Positions 931-4,334 of a stretch of 64,000 nucleotides of DNA are shown here, one piece after another. The notes beneath the pieces are model-generated. The model saw only the letters and a program-made list of their open reading frames with translations. It searched no databases and was not told the origin of the DNA. The position numbers and the translations under genes are program-made. This DNA comes from Halostella limicola (GTDB lineage Archaea > Halobacteriota > Halobacteria > Halobacteriales > Natronoarchaeaceae): the NCBI RefSeq assembly GCF_003675875.1, contig NZ_RCDI01000002.1, forward strand, positions 250,786 through 314,785, written 5' to 3'. Within the stretch, counting starts at the first letter, position 1, and every line of letters begins with the position of its first letter.

Positions 931-1788
931 CTACGGGGCGCCTCCGCCGTCCGACTGGTCGCCGCCGGCGTCGGCCGCGGCGGCGACTGGGTCGTCCGAC
1001 TCGCCCGCGTCGAACGCAGACACGGCGTCGATGCGCGACGAGAGAAGCCCCCGGAGCCAGACGAGCAGGCCGTGGTCGACGCCGCGACACCAGACGGCCG
1101 TCGCCTCCGTCACTCCCGGGAGGTCCCCCTCTCTGGCGGCGCTGAGCAGGACCGCGTCGCGGTCGACCATCACGGCGTGGGACGGGCAGTGCCCCCGCGT
1201 CGCCGCCGCCTCGAACCCGCCGTACACCGAGACGTCGGCCCGGGGAACCGCCTCCCTGATAGCCGCGCCGACGGGTTCCGACGGCACCTCCGCGAGAACC
1301 CGGATCCCCCGCTCCGCGAGCGTCGCGACCCGGCCCAGTACGTCGTCGCCGAGCGCTCCCTCGGCGGCGACGAGGAGGTACACCTCCGATTCCGCGTCGT
1401 CGAGCAGCGTCAGCGTCCTGCTGACGACGTGGTCGCGGCTGGAGATCTCCCAGACGCCCCGCTCCGACCGGCGGTGGTCGTCGAGCGCGTCGAGCGTCTC
1501 GTCGACCTCGTCGAGCGCCGAGCGGAAGTCGCGTTCGAACACGGACAGCACCTCGTGCTCATCGACCGCCCTGTACCGACGGGGGTCCGAGCGCTGCACG
1601 TCGACGAGACCGCGTTCCGAGAGGCGGTCGAGGGCGTCGTACACGCGCGATCGCGGCACCTCGGAGATCTGGCTGACCTCCTTCGCGGTCCCCGACCGGA
1701 TCTTCGAGAGCGCGACGAAACAGCGGGCCTCGTACTCGGTCAGACCGATCGATTCGAGCGCGGCGACCGCCTCCTCGTCGCCGCTCAT
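931..1788 (-). CDS. TrmB-family transcriptional regulator
   Basis: A 285-residue protein. Residues 1-75 form the TrmB-type winged helix (the ALESIGLTEYEARCFVALSK region, then EVPRSRVYDALDRL as recognition helix and an RYRAV wing). TrmB proteins of euryarchaea control sugar and central-carbon genes, but the C-terminal part here (about 110-270, ending in VWCRGVDHGLLVWLRG) is a haloarchaeal sensor half rather than the sugar-binding domain of Pyrococcus TrmB, so the ligand is unknown. Its start overlaps the stop of the upstream DUF7344 gene by four bases (ATGA), implying cotranscription. Family call firm, regulon unknown. Confidence 0.85.
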   Translation of the reverse strand: MSGDEEAVAALESIGLTEYEARCFVALSKIRSGTAKEVSQISEVPRSRVYDALDRLSERGLVDVQRSDPRRYRAVDEHEVLSVFERDFRSALDEVDETLDALDDHRRSERGVWEISSRDHVVSRTLTLLDDAESEVYLLVAAEGALGDDVLGRVATLAERGIRVLAEVPSEPVGAAIREAVPRADVSVYGGFEAAATRGHCPSHAVMVDRDAVLLSAAREGDLPGVTEATAVWCRGVDHGLLVWLRGLLSSRIDAVSAFDAGESDDPVAAAADAGGDQSDGGGAP

Positions 1789-2168
1789 GGCGCGTTAGCG
1801 GCCCCGTCGGACGCCCGGTTCCGATCGGCCGGTTCCGGGCCGACCGTCAGTAACGCGAGCGCCGCGTCGAACGCCGTCCCCGGCCGAACGACGGTCCCCT
1901 CAGGCCCTCGCTCCGCGACGCCCGCCTCGGCCAGCACCGGCAGATGGACTCGGCGGAGCGAGGTCCGGACCCGCTCTCGGGTCGCCGCCGCGTCCACCGC
2001 CGGCCGGTCGGCGTCGTCCGCTCCAGCGACCTTTCCGACGAGATCCGAGAACGCGACGGGCCCGTCGGCGCTGTCGAGCACGCGTACCACCCGGCGTCGT
2101 CGTCGGCGAGCCAGCGCCTCGAAGAGCCTGTCGATCTCTCGATCGGATCCCTTCGACGTGTCAGTCAT
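1785..2168 (-). CDS. DUF7344-type winged-helix regulator
   Basis: A 127-residue small DNA-binding protein. The N terminus has the DUF7344 signature seen in haloarchaeal winged-helix proteins (EIDRLFEALARRRRRRVVRVL, a conserved first helix of the wHTH), followed by RTSLRRVHLPVLAEAGV, the usual recognition-helix/wing segment. It is the first gene of a two-gene unit with the TrmB-type regulator downstream (four-base overlap). The promoter region holds several inverted repeats, suggesting that one of the two proteins autoregulates. Targets are not evident. Confidence 0.8.
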   Translation of the reverse strand: MTDTSKGSDREIDRLFEALARRRRRRVVRVLDSADGPVAFSDLVGKVAGADDADRPAVDAAATRERVRTSLRRVHLPVLAEAGVAERGPEGTVVRPGTAFDAALALLTVGPEPADRNRASDGAANAP

Positions 2169-2205: not shown

Positions 2206-2252
2206 TGTCATTCTAAGAATCAGAAGCGTGCGGTTGTCACGAGAATGACAAC
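2206..2252. promoter_or_regulatory. cluster of nested inverted repeats (candidate operators)
   Basis: Three overlapping dyads are visible: the 11-bp palindrome ATTCTAAGAAT at 2210-2220; GTTGTCA at 2233-2239 with its complement TGACAAC at 2246-2252; and TGTCATTCT at 2206-2214 with AGAATGACA at 2242-2250. They lie directly upstream of the TATA-like box of the regulator pair, where BRE and activator sites sit in haloarchaea. They probably bind one of the two adjacent regulators or another dimeric regulator; the binding protein is inferred, not known. Confidence 0.5.
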
Positions 2253-2266
2253 GGCGAGAAGGCGAC

Positions 2267-2347
2267 GCCGCGGGTAGGAGTCGAACCTACAACCCGTCTC
2301 CGGGGCCGGCCGAAGCCGGTGGGCTCGCGCTCGTGCCCAGCCACGGC
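2267..2347 (-). ncRNA. tRNA-shaped RNA with no anticodon loop
   Basis: Read on the minus strand this 81-nt stretch folds as a class II-like cloverleaf. Positions 1-7 (GCCGTGG) pair with 75-81 (CCGCGGC) as a complete acceptor stem with one G-U pair. Positions 9-13 pair with 24-28 (TGGGC/GCCCA) as a D-like arm with a ten-base loop that lacks the usual GG. Positions 29-33 pair with 38-42 (CCGGC/GCCGG) around a UUCG tetraloop where the anticodon arm should be. Positions 44-47 pair with 52-55 (CCCG/CGGG) around GAGA like a long variable arm. Positions 58-62 pair with 70-74 around TTCGACT, a canonical T loop. The base after position 81 is G and CCA is not encoded, as is usual in haloarchaea. It cannot decode a codon. 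It may be a functional tRNA mimic or a decayed Ser/Leu-type tRNA; perfect pairing in every arm argues against simple decay. Confidence 0.7.
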
Positions 2348-2374: not shown

Positions 2375-2384
2375 TTAGTTATAC
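2375..2384 (-). promoter_or_regulatory. possible promoter of the tRNA-shaped RNA
   Basis: On the minus strand GTATAACTAA lies 28-37 bases upstream of the first base of the acceptor stem, a plausible TATA position allowing a short 5' leader for RNase P processing. The match to the archaeal consensus is weak. Confidence 0.35.
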
Positions 2385-2411: not shown

Positions 2412-3404
2412 CTACGGCGCGAAAAAGGCGTCACCGTGGTCGTCTCGCCAGGCGAACGCGAACAGCCTGCGGGCCGGGGCACGGTCGAGCGCTCGGCCGT
2501 CGTCGCTCTCGCCGGTCGCCCCGTTCCAGCGGGCGCCGTCGGCCCGGAACCACCCGTCCCCGTCCGGTTCGAACCGCAGTCCCGTCTCGAACCCGTGGAG
2601 GCCGTCGGGCGTCGCGAAGACGGCCACGTCGTGGCCGCCGACGGACACGTGGACGACCCCGCCGGCGTCTCTCACGTCGCGGAGCGGGACCCCGAGGGTG
2701 TCGCCGTCGTACTCCAGACCGAGGACGACGTCTTTGGGGTCGAGGCGGGCGTGGTCCCACTCGCGGGACTCGCCCTCGCCGCGGTGAGCCGCCAGTCCGA
2801 ACCCCGCCGACTCGAAGTACGCCTCGTAGGGCGCGGCGTCGTAGTCGATCGGTTCGGGGTCGTCGCCGTCGCCGCTCGCTTCGCTCTCGCCGCCGGGCGG
2901 CGCGAGAACGACGCCGGCGGGATGGGCCTCGCGGAACGCCGCCCACGTCGTCATCGCCGCGGGGAGGACCGAAAGCGTCGTCCCCTCGAAATCGCCCGCG
3001 ATGGCTTCGCCCGCGGACTGCTTCCACTCGCTCTCCGTCTCGCGGTCGTACATCACGAGGTCGTCGTCGGCGAGTTTCCCCGAGACGCCGAACGTCAGAA
3101 CCGCCGAGTCGCCGGCCACATCGCTCCCGTTACCGGCCGGCCCGTCGACCCGGCGGTCGTAGACCACGGCGCTCCCGCAGAGCGGGCACCACGTGACGGC
3201 GACCGGCCGATCGCCGTCGTCCGTCGGGCCCCGGTCGTTGACGATCTCGTGGTAGTGGAGGTAGCGAACGGGGTAGGCCCGCGGCGGAGATGCTTCGGCG
3301 AGCGCGATCACCTCGTCGTCCGGGTCCCCATCGTACTCGTCGACGAACTCCGGGTCGTCGACGCTCGGGATGGCGTCGCGGGGGATGACCTGTCTGACGT
3401 TCAT
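2412..3404 (-). CDS. DUF3179 domain-containing protein
   Basis: A 330-residue protein of the DUF3179 family, recognised by the N-terminal segment IPRDAIPSVDDPEFV, the VIAL..ARAYPVRYLHYHEIVND-like core (here PRAYPVRYLHYHEIVND), the cysteine motif VTWCPLCGSAVVYDR, and the later LTFGVSGKLADDDLVMYDRE and SEWKQSAGEAI segments. The C-x-x-C pair is invariant in the family and could bind a metal, but the biochemical role is unknown. I chose the ATG at 3404 because the family begins at this NVRQVIP segment; an upstream ATG at 3476 would add 24 basic residues. It lacks the lipobox or signal found in some bacterial members. Confidence 0.85.
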   Translation of the reverse strand: MNVRQVIPRDAIPSVDDPEFVDEYDGDPDDEVIALAEASPPRAYPVRYLHYHEIVNDRGPTDDGDRPVAVTWCPLCGSAVVYDRRVDGPAGNGSDVAGDSAVLTFGVSGKLADDDLVMYDRETESEWKQSAGEAIAGDFEGTTLSVLPAAMTTWAAFREAHPAGVVLAPPGGESEASGDGDDPEPIDYDAAPYEAYFESAGFGLAAHRGEGESREWDHARLDPKDVVLGLEYDGDTLGVPLRDVRDAGGVVHVSVGGHDVAVFATPDGLHGFETGLRFEPDGDGWFRADGARWNGATGESDDGRALDRAPARRLFAFAWRDDHGDAFFAP

Positions 3405-3512: not shown

Positions 3513-4220
3513 CTACGATACGAGTTCGAACGAGAGCCGCTCCTCCTCCGGCCCCTTCGTCTCCCGGCCGGTCGCCCGGAACTCGCCGATCTCGTCGGTG
3601 TTCGAGACGTGGGTGCCCGCGCAGGCCGTTCGGTCGTAGTCGCTGACCTCGACGATGCGGACCTCGGTGATACTGTCCGGGAGCAGGTGGATGCGGGTGC
3701 GCTCGGGGTCCAGCGTCGCCTCGGCCTCGTCGCGGTCGAGTTCGTACCACTCGACGGGGAGCGACCGGTCGATCAGCTCGTTCATCCGGGCGGTGACGTC
3801 GGCGAGGTCGGTCTCGGTGAACCGGTCGTAGCCGCAGTCGATGCGCGCCCGGTCGGCGTACAGCTGGTTGCCGGTCGTCTCGGCGTCGTACTCCTCCAGG
3901 AGGAGCGCCGACAGGAGGTGCTGGGCGGTGTGGTAGCGCATGTGCGCGTACCGCCGCTCCCAGTCGAGTTCGCCGGTGACGACGGTGCCCTCGGCGGGCG
4001 GGTCGCCGTCGACGGCGTGATAGATCGTGTCCCGCTTCTGCACGTCGGTCACGCGCCAGGTCGCTCCCTCGGCCGACAGCGCCCCCGCGTCGGCCGGCTG
4101 GCCGCCGCCCTCGGGGTAGAACAGCGTCCGGTCGAGAACGACCCGGTCGTCGACGACGCGCTCGACCGTCGCCTCGAACTGACAGTCGTCCGATAGATCG
4201 AGATAGAGCGGTTCGGTCAC
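3513..4220 (-). CDS. alaX: alanyl-tRNA editing protein (AlaX)
   Basis: A 235-residue free-standing editing domain that hydrolyses Ser-tRNA(Ala) or Gly-tRNA(Ala). It carries the four zinc ligands of the AlaRS editing site: HTAQH at residues 97-101 and CAGTH at 200-204, and the TLFYPEGGGQPADAG motif (32-46) of the N-terminal barrel. The length fits AlaX-M. No ATG is available; the GTG at 4220 gives a start just before the conserved LYLDLSDDCQFEATV segment and lies 21-30 bases below a TATA-like box, so translation is probably leaderless. The only upstream ATG in reach (RC of 4242-4244) is out of frame and closes at once. Confidence 0.9.
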   Translation of the reverse strand: MTEPLYLDLSDDCQFEATVERVVDDRVVLDRTLFYPEGGGQPADAGALSAEGATWRVTDVQKRDTIYHAVDGDPPAEGTVVTGELDWERRYAHMRYHTAQHLLSALLLEEYDAETTGNQLYADRARIDCGYDRFTETDLADVTARMNELIDRSLPVEWYELDRDEAEATLDPERTRIHLLPDSITEVRIVEVSDYDRTACAGTHVSNTDEIGEFRATGRETKGPEEERLSFELVS

Positions 4221-4240
4221 GGCCGGCTGAAAGACTTCTA

Positions 4241-4250
4241 CATACTTAAT
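4241..4250 (-). promoter_or_regulatory. TATA-like box of alaX
   Basis: ATTAAGTATG on the minus strand, 21-30 bases upstream of the GTG start at 4220. Its spacing is the reason for preferring that GTG. Confidence 0.5.
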
Positions 4251-4334
4251 TCGGAGTGTCGTAACGCTAAAGAGTCGAACAGGCCATTGTATACACACCA
4301 ATGAACAACGGATTCGCGCTGTCGGGGTGGTACC

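What the first reader, a model, noticed from the sequence alone, without database searches (positions are those of the whole stretch)
2267..2347. tRNA-shaped RNA whose anticodon arm is replaced by a UUCG hairpin
Directly visible: 7-bp acceptor stem, D-like arm, a long-variable-type arm (CCCG-GAGA-CGGG), and a canonical T arm with TTCGACT. In place of the anticodon arm is CCGGC-UUCG-GCCGG, one of the most stable tetraloops known. All five stems pair without mismatch (one G-U). Known tRNA biology says such a molecule cannot decode, but its acceptor/T half could still be processed by RNase P/Z, receive CCA and be bound by EF1A or a synthetase (G discriminator, class II-like arm). Inference: a regulatory or amino-acid-sequestering tRNA mimic rather than decay, because decay would break the pairing. 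I do not recognise it as a described RNA.
Basis: partly seen in the sequence, partly recalled or inferred. Interest (0 to 1): 0.82.

Follow-up and report, generated by a model that had tools for sequence, protein, structure and literature searches.

The report
Conserved tRNA-like gene lacking an anticodon
In the salt-loving archaeal genus Halostella every available genome keeps a small gene for an RNA shaped like a serine tRNA whose codon-reading loop has been replaced by a tight 3-4-base cap, so it cannot read the genetic code but is kept intact by selection, apparently for a job outside ordinary protein synthesis.

Summary
The element is real. It is an 82-nt cloverleaf on the minus strand (2347..2266, one base longer than stated): 25 pairs, Ser-type long variable arm, G73, and a 5-bp UUCG hairpin in place of the anticodon arm. 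It occurs once in each of 5/5 Halostella genomes. All stems pair in all five. Changes are G-U/G-C exchanges, one compensatory pair, or loop changes; the 'anticodon' loop is UUCG or UUU and the variable-arm loop is always GNRA. Downstream flanks share 30% identity and neighbour genes come and go, yet the element stays. No sequence-similar anticodon-less form was found in other haloarchaea (two ~390-genome model searches, one GTDB pattern scan). A model built only from tRNA-Ser(GCU) of mobile haloarchaeal tRNA clusters, with no Halostella sequence, hits the window here alone (68 bits, E~1e-12). So it most likely descends from that lineage and lost its anticodon loop. It has a tRNA-type promoter box, and the genome keeps four normal Ser tRNAs. 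Best reading: an independent, non-decoding tRNA-Ser derivative recruited outside decoding. Charging with serine is predicted, not shown. The suggested link to DUF7344-TrmB is refuted; 'regulatory or sequestering mimic' is possible but untested. New variant of pseudo-tRNA.

The parts
2266..2347 (-). tRNA-like RNA gene (82 nt): GCCGUGG CU GGGC ACGAGCGCGA GCCC A CCGGC UUCG GCCGG C CCCG GAGA CGGG UU GUAGG UUCGACU CCUAC CCGCGGC G
   Evidence: conserved in 5/5 Halostella genomes
2341..2347 (-). acceptor stem 5' strand GCCGUGG (one U.G pair, C-G in G003)
2321..2338 (-). D-like arm: 4-bp stem GGGC/GCCC with 10-nt loop (a fifth pair U9-A28 in the predicted fold)
2306..2319 (-). hairpin in place of the anticodon arm: CCGGC-UUCG-GCCGG (CCGGU-UUCG-ACCGG in G004; CCGGC-UUU-GCCGG in G002)
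   Evidence: no 7-nt loop possible in this arm
2293..2304 (-). long variable arm CCCG-GNRA-CGGG; 1 nt before it and 2 nt (UU) after it, as in this genome's Ser tRNAs
2274..2290 (-). T arm GUAGG-UUCGACU-CCUAC, invariant in all five genomes
2266..2273 (-). acceptor stem 3' strand CCGCGGC plus discriminator G73
2375..2383 (-). promoter-like A+T box TATAACTAA, 28-36 nt before the mature 5' end, at the same position in all five genomes and in the range of the boxes of this genome's ordinary tRNA genes
   Evidence: promoter activity inferred
1785..2168 (-). neighbour: DUF7344 protein (not a constant partner)
931..1788 (-). neighbour: TrmB-family regulator (not a constant partner)
2412..3404 (-). neighbour upstream of the element: DUF3179 protein (present in 3 of 5 genomes)
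3516..4268 (-). neighbour: AlaX-type alanyl-tRNA editing protein, end of the only gene block kept next to the element in all five genomes, but common in haloarchaea without the element

Best explanation
An independent gene for a non-decoding tRNA-Ser derivative. Most likely a tRNA-Ser(GCU) gene of the kind carried by mobile haloarchaeal tRNA clusters was left in the Halostella ancestor. Its 17-nt anticodon arm shrank to a 13-14-nt hairpin with a UUCG or UUU cap, and the molecule was kept for a job outside decoding. Shown: structure, conservation in five genomes, similarity to cluster tRNA-Ser(GCU), no usable anticodon, normal Ser tRNAs elsewhere in the genome. Inferred: transcription from its own TATA-type promoter, trimming by RNase P and tRNase Z, CCA addition, charging with serine by SerRS (which ignores the anticodon and reads the long variable arm and G73). 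Speculative: the charged or uncharged molecule then acts as a serine donor for a non-ribosomal enzyme or as a ligand/regulator of SerRS or EF1A. Estimates: selected non-decoding RNA gene 0.8; charged with serine 0.45; serine donor 0.2; regulator or decoy 0.4.
For: One copy in each of 5/5 Halostella genomes, none in 4 sister-genus genomes. All 25 pairs kept in every variant, with U.G/C-G and C-G/U.G exchanges, one C-G to U-A double change, GNRA loop kept (GAGA, GCGA, GGAA); random placement of the same ten substitutions keeps all pairs in 0.5% of trials. Flanks: 60% identity over 60 nt upstream, mostly the promoter-like box and leader, and 30% downstream. Genes on both sides are replaced or decayed while the element stays. 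Model R2, from cluster tRNA-Ser(GCU) only, scores it 68.4 bits, above the host's own Ser tRNAs (GGA 53.8, GCU 28.3 bits; UGA, CGA not reported); outside the anticodon arm identity is 69-74% to cluster tRNA-Ser(GCU), below 50% to host Ser tRNAs. Ser-type marks: GCC/GGC acceptor end, G73, two nt between variable arm and T stem (this genome's Ser tRNAs 2, Leu 3). Serine identity rests on the variable arm and not the anticodon, and G73 keeps LeuRS off in H. volcanii (PMC9976931). Four canonical Ser tRNAs are present.
Against: No expression, charging or binding data. Covariation is thin (one double change among four distinct sequences; 142/500 shuffles do as well). It varies more than the canonical Halostella tRNA-Ser(GCU) (99-100% identical). 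Its D loop has lost the G18-G19 pair that normally docks with the T loop, so the elbow, and hence SerRS/EF1A recognition, may be altered. No partner gene was found: TROVE absent, FemAB-like enzymes not correlated, CDPS search uninformative. Descent from the cluster tRNA rests on an 82-nt similarity; the short-sequence tree has weak support.
Confidence: 0.62

Rival explanations
1. An uncharged structural decoy or scaffold: the tRNA-like body binds tRNA-processing, modification or degradation enzymes, or SerRS without charging, and its fold rather than a serine load is what is kept.
For: Hairpin cap is free to vary (UUCG, UUU) while stems are kept; D loop lacks G18-G19; precedent: pseudo-tRNA tRNAOther of B. 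cereus is poorly charged, off polysomes, and its deletion changes gene expression (PMC3399842).
Against: Acceptor end, G73, variable-arm stem and T arm are among the most conserved parts, as expected if charging matters.
Confidence: 0.2
2. A transcript-processing element: a tRNA-shaped punctuation mark cut by RNase P and tRNase Z that sets the 3' end of the AlaX-side transcript or the 5' end of the downstream gene.
For: Always 3' of and on the same strand as AlaX (or AlaX-DUF3179) in all five genomes.
Against: It has its own conserved tRNA-type promoter box; the nearest upstream gene changes (DUF3179 or AlaX) and the downstream gene changes or decays; the AlaX orthologue is found in 107 of 293 genomes and no element lies beside it in the 25 loci checked.
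Confidence: 0.1
3. A decaying relic of a mobile tRNA cluster or an attachment site that happens still to look intact.
For: Related clusters do decay (L023 keeps only two tRNAs) and one cluster tRNA-Glu has an anticodon-loop deletion; the element's downstream neighbourhood is variable.
Against: No broken pair in five diverged genomes, GNRA loops kept, flanks not conserved; no repeat of any 13-nt or longer piece within 8 kb and no second copy in the genome.
Confidence: 0.1
4. A working tRNA with an anticodon hidden in another fold or supplied by splicing.
For: A 5-bp stem with a 7-nt loop can be drawn over the variable arm.
Against: That loop has G instead of U33, its 'anticodon' would be GAG, GCG or GGA in different species, and it leaves the hairpin unexplained; no 7-nt loop fits the real arm and one species has a 3-nt cap. 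Splice motifs were not searched systematically.
Confidence: 0.04

Closest known systems
tRNA-Ser(GCU) of haloarchaeal plasmid/chromosomal tRNA gene clusters (PMC6333295)
   Same: 69-74% identical outside the anticodon arm; same acceptor end, C8-U9, variable arm and two-nt spacer, UUCGACU T loop, similar GUGU leader
   Different: Cluster copies sit among about 10-16 tRNA genes and have a normal 7-nt anticodon loop CUGCUAC; here a solitary gene with a 3-4-nt cap and a rebuilt D loop
tRNAOther of Bacillus cereus (PMC3399842)
   Same: tRNA-shaped gene kept in a group of species and not used for decoding
   Different: tRNAOther still has a Trp anticodon and is bacterial; sequences were not compared here
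Non-proteinogenic tRNA-Gly of Staphylococcus (peptidoglycan bridge; own knowledge)
   Same: tRNA dedicated to non-ribosomal amino acid supply
   Different: Keeps a full anticodon arm; archaea have no murein
tmRNA tRNA-like domain; mascRNA; bacterial Y RNA tRNA-like module (own knowledge)
   Same: Acceptor and T arms without an anticodon
   Different: Parts of longer RNAs or lacking D and variable arms; mascRNA model 16 bits against a cut-off of 42.5
tRNA-Sec (RF01852)
   Same: Serylated class II tRNA; best Rfam hit
   Different: 24.9 bits against cut-off 47, no UCA anticodon, no extended acceptor stem

Membership tests
Canonical elongator tRNA | 7-nt anticodon loop with U33 and a triplet anticodon | tested here: not met
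   Arm of 13-14 nt with 3-4-nt cap in all five genomes; only alternative 7-nt loop lacks U33 and its triplet varies
Canonical elongator tRNA | Acceptor stem 7 bp and T arm 5 bp with UUCNANN loop | tested here: met
Canonical elongator tRNA | Reaches Rfam tRNA cut-off | tested here: not met
   No match at gathering score; absent from the 44 tRNA matches of the own genome
tRNA-Ser (class II) lineage | Long variable arm with Ser-type spacing (2 nt before the T stem), G73, GCC/GGC acceptor end | tested here: met
tRNA-Ser (class II) lineage | Charged with serine by SerRS | not testable with these tools
   prediction only; identity rules from PMC9976931
tRNA-Ser (class II) lineage | G18-G19 in the D loop | tested here: not met
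   D loop ACGAGCGCGA / ACGUGCGAGA has no GG; cluster tRNA-Ser has it
Mobile haloarchaeal tRNA gene cluster | Sequence relationship to cluster tRNA-Ser(GCU) | tested here: met
Mobile haloarchaeal tRNA gene cluster | Tandem tRNA genes and TROVE protein nearby | tested here: not met
   Single tRNA-like gene in the window; no TROVE in Halostella
Recruited pseudo-tRNA (functional, non-decoding) | tRNA fold kept by selection without decoding ability | tested here: met
   small sample
Recruited pseudo-tRNA (functional, non-decoding) | Expressed, absent from polysomes, deletion phenotype | not testable with these tools
   needs experiments
tRNA-Sec | UCA anticodon, extended acceptor/D stems, Rfam cut-off | tested here: not met
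   24.9 bits, cut-off 47
Decaying tRNA pseudogene | Unpaired changes accumulating in stems | tested here: not met
   100% of 100 pair cells are standard in four distinct sequences

The most novel reading that the evidence does not exclude
A stand-alone tRNA gene that has lost its anticodon loop and is maintained as a serylated, non-decoding molecule, either a dedicated serine donor for a non-ribosomal enzyme or a regulator of SerRS/EF1A, derived from a tRNA of a mobile tRNA cluster.
Probability: 0.35. Interest if true: 0.82.

Novelty: new variant of a known kind. Interest (0 to 1): 0.64.

Why it matters
The tRNAs recruited outside decoding that I know of keep an anticodon or are pieces of larger RNAs. 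A short, conserved, solitary tRNA gene with its reading head replaced by a stable cap is a natural separation of charging from decoding. It could be used directly to ask what an aminoacyl-tRNA does in an archaeon besides feeding the ribosome, and it suggests mobile tRNA clusters as a source of new non-coding RNAs. It is small, single-copy and conserved, so deletion and charging tests are simple. Halostella itself may need a genetic system, but Haloferax volcanii could host it.

Tried and rejected
Link to DUF7344-TrmB: present in 2, decayed in 1, absent in 2 of 5 genomes. AlaX as a specific partner: orthologue in 107 of 293 haloarchaea, without a tRNA-like gene of this kind next to it in the 25 loci checked. 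TROVE/Ro60 partner: absent from Halostella. CDPS: no hit, but no control rang. FemAB-like GNATs: in 8/9 genomes, none found in G004, which has the element. Viral origin: no match of cluster tRNA in phage records, only short T-arm matches for the element, none in IMG/VR with the arm pattern; the nine IMG/VR hits of the T-arm string are ordinary tRNAs. Attachment site: no repeats. Hidden anticodon: see rivals. UUCG-hairpin plus T-loop pattern in 392 genomes: besides three Halostella, only scattered hits; none of the ten checked is called as a tRNA gene at the pattern. Plasmid search with the element: none. First fold was on the wrong strand. Literature searches for an anticodon-less tRNA in archaea found no description; subscription papers are not held.

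Full report
Observation. The 82-nt RNA is GCCGUGG CU GGGC ACGAGCGCGA GCCC A CCGGC UUCG GCCGG C CCCG GAGA CGGG UU GUAGG UUCGACU CCUAC CCGCGGC G. ARAGORN calls 'tRNA-???' there and nothing else in the window. Rfam reports nothing at its cut-offs, and the Rfam tRNA model lists 44 tRNAs in this genome without it. The cloverleaf is the minimum-energy fold of the minus strand.

Conservation. The genome belongs to Halostella: G002's contig length equals CP040678.1 (H. pelagica) and G004's equals PXSA01000014.1. All five Halostella genomes have one copy, the four sister-genus genomes none. Among four distinct sequences every pair is kept. Changes are U.G to C-G in the acceptor stem, C-G to U.G in the D stem, C-G to U-A on both sides at the top of the hairpin, two D-loop changes, a shorter cap (UUU) and GNRA-to-GNRA changes in the variable-arm loop. 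Covariation alone is too thin to be significant (142 of 500 shuffles reach it). But placing the ten substitutions at random keeps all pairs in only 0.5% of trials, while downstream flanks are at 30% identity. It varies more than the canonical tRNA-Ser(GCU) of the same genomes.

Autonomy. Upstream, in all five genomes, lies a block of a metal-type regulator, GDT1, LysE, HD protein and AlaX; DUF3179 sits between AlaX and the element in three. Downstream, DUF7344 and TrmB are intact in two genomes, reduced to fragments in G004 and missing in two. The element survives all these changes. A box ending in ACTA lies about 28-36 nt before the 5' end in all five, in the range where this genome's ordinary tRNA genes have theirs. 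It is therefore read as its own transcription unit, not a leader of DUF7344-TrmB. AlaX is not a specific partner, since it is widespread without the element.

Origin. A covariance search of 392 and then 391 haloarchaeal genomes showed two groups above the background of ordinary tRNAs: Halostella (104-113 bits) and tRNA-Ser(GCU) genes at 66-72 bits in scattered genera of five families. The latter mostly sit in arrays of about 10-16 tRNA genes, some on plasmids, one shown here with a TROVE protein gene; these are the tRNA gene clusters described in PMC6333295. A model of these cluster tRNAs alone finds the window element with E 1.2e-12 and nothing else in 64 kb. Host Ser tRNAs score less and are less alike. 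So descent from this lineage is likely, though not proved by an 82-nt alignment. One cluster tRNA-Glu has itself lost two anticodon-loop bases, and one array has shrunk to two tRNAs, so both steps of the proposed history have parallels.

No anticodon. The arm is 13 or 14 nt instead of 17, so no 7-nt loop fits. The one alternative stem with a 7-nt loop and no mismatch, over the variable arm, lacks U33 and would read GAG, GCG or GGA in different species. Four canonical Ser tRNAs serve decoding.

Mechanism. Acceptor end, G73 and the variable-arm spacing match this genome's Ser tRNAs and differ from its Leu tRNAs. The review PMC9976931 states that serine identity depends on the variable arm and not on the anticodon, and that G73 excludes LeuRS in H. 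volcanii. Charging with serine is thus the natural prediction. The lost G18-G19 pair in the D loop is a warning that the elbow may differ. What the molecule then does (serine donor, SerRS/EF1A ligand, decoy) is not determined; no correlated partner gene was found. The nearest functional precedent is tRNAOther of B. cereus, a non-decoding pseudo-tRNA whose loss changes gene expression (PMC3399842), which still has an anticodon.

Verdict. Real, conserved, non-decoding tRNA-Ser derivative, restricted to one genus as far as searched; a new variant of the recruited pseudo-tRNA kind.

Noticed in passing
L014:2522-2592 (= L120:7076-7146, Halobellus inordinatus): The cluster tRNA-Glu(CUC) has lost two bases of its anticodon loop (CTCTCAC to CTCAC); ARAGORN mislabels it tRNA-SeC(tca). 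A second anticodon-loop loss in this family of mobile tRNAs.
   Followed up: partly
L048:8119-8674 (G004): DUF7344 and TrmB beside the element are reduced to fragments (43 of 127 and 85 of 285 residues), while orthologues in G000 and G002 are intact.
   Followed up: yes
L023 (G118): A decayed tRNA cluster: only tRNA-Ser(GCU) and an undetermined tRNA remain within 3 kb.
   Followed up: no
L016, L107, L050 (Natribaculum breve, G207): Same tRNA cluster present on both the chromosome and a 637-kb plasmid.
   Followed up: no
L051:9405-10934 (Halosimplex aquaticum plasmid): TROVE (Ro60-type) protein gene within the tRNA cluster; association already reported in PMC6333295, function unknown.
   Followed up: partly
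window 2208-2255: Short inverted repeats (attctaagaat; gttgtcacgagaatgacaac) between the element and DUF7344, possibly operator sites of the downstream genes; seen by eye.
   Followed up: no
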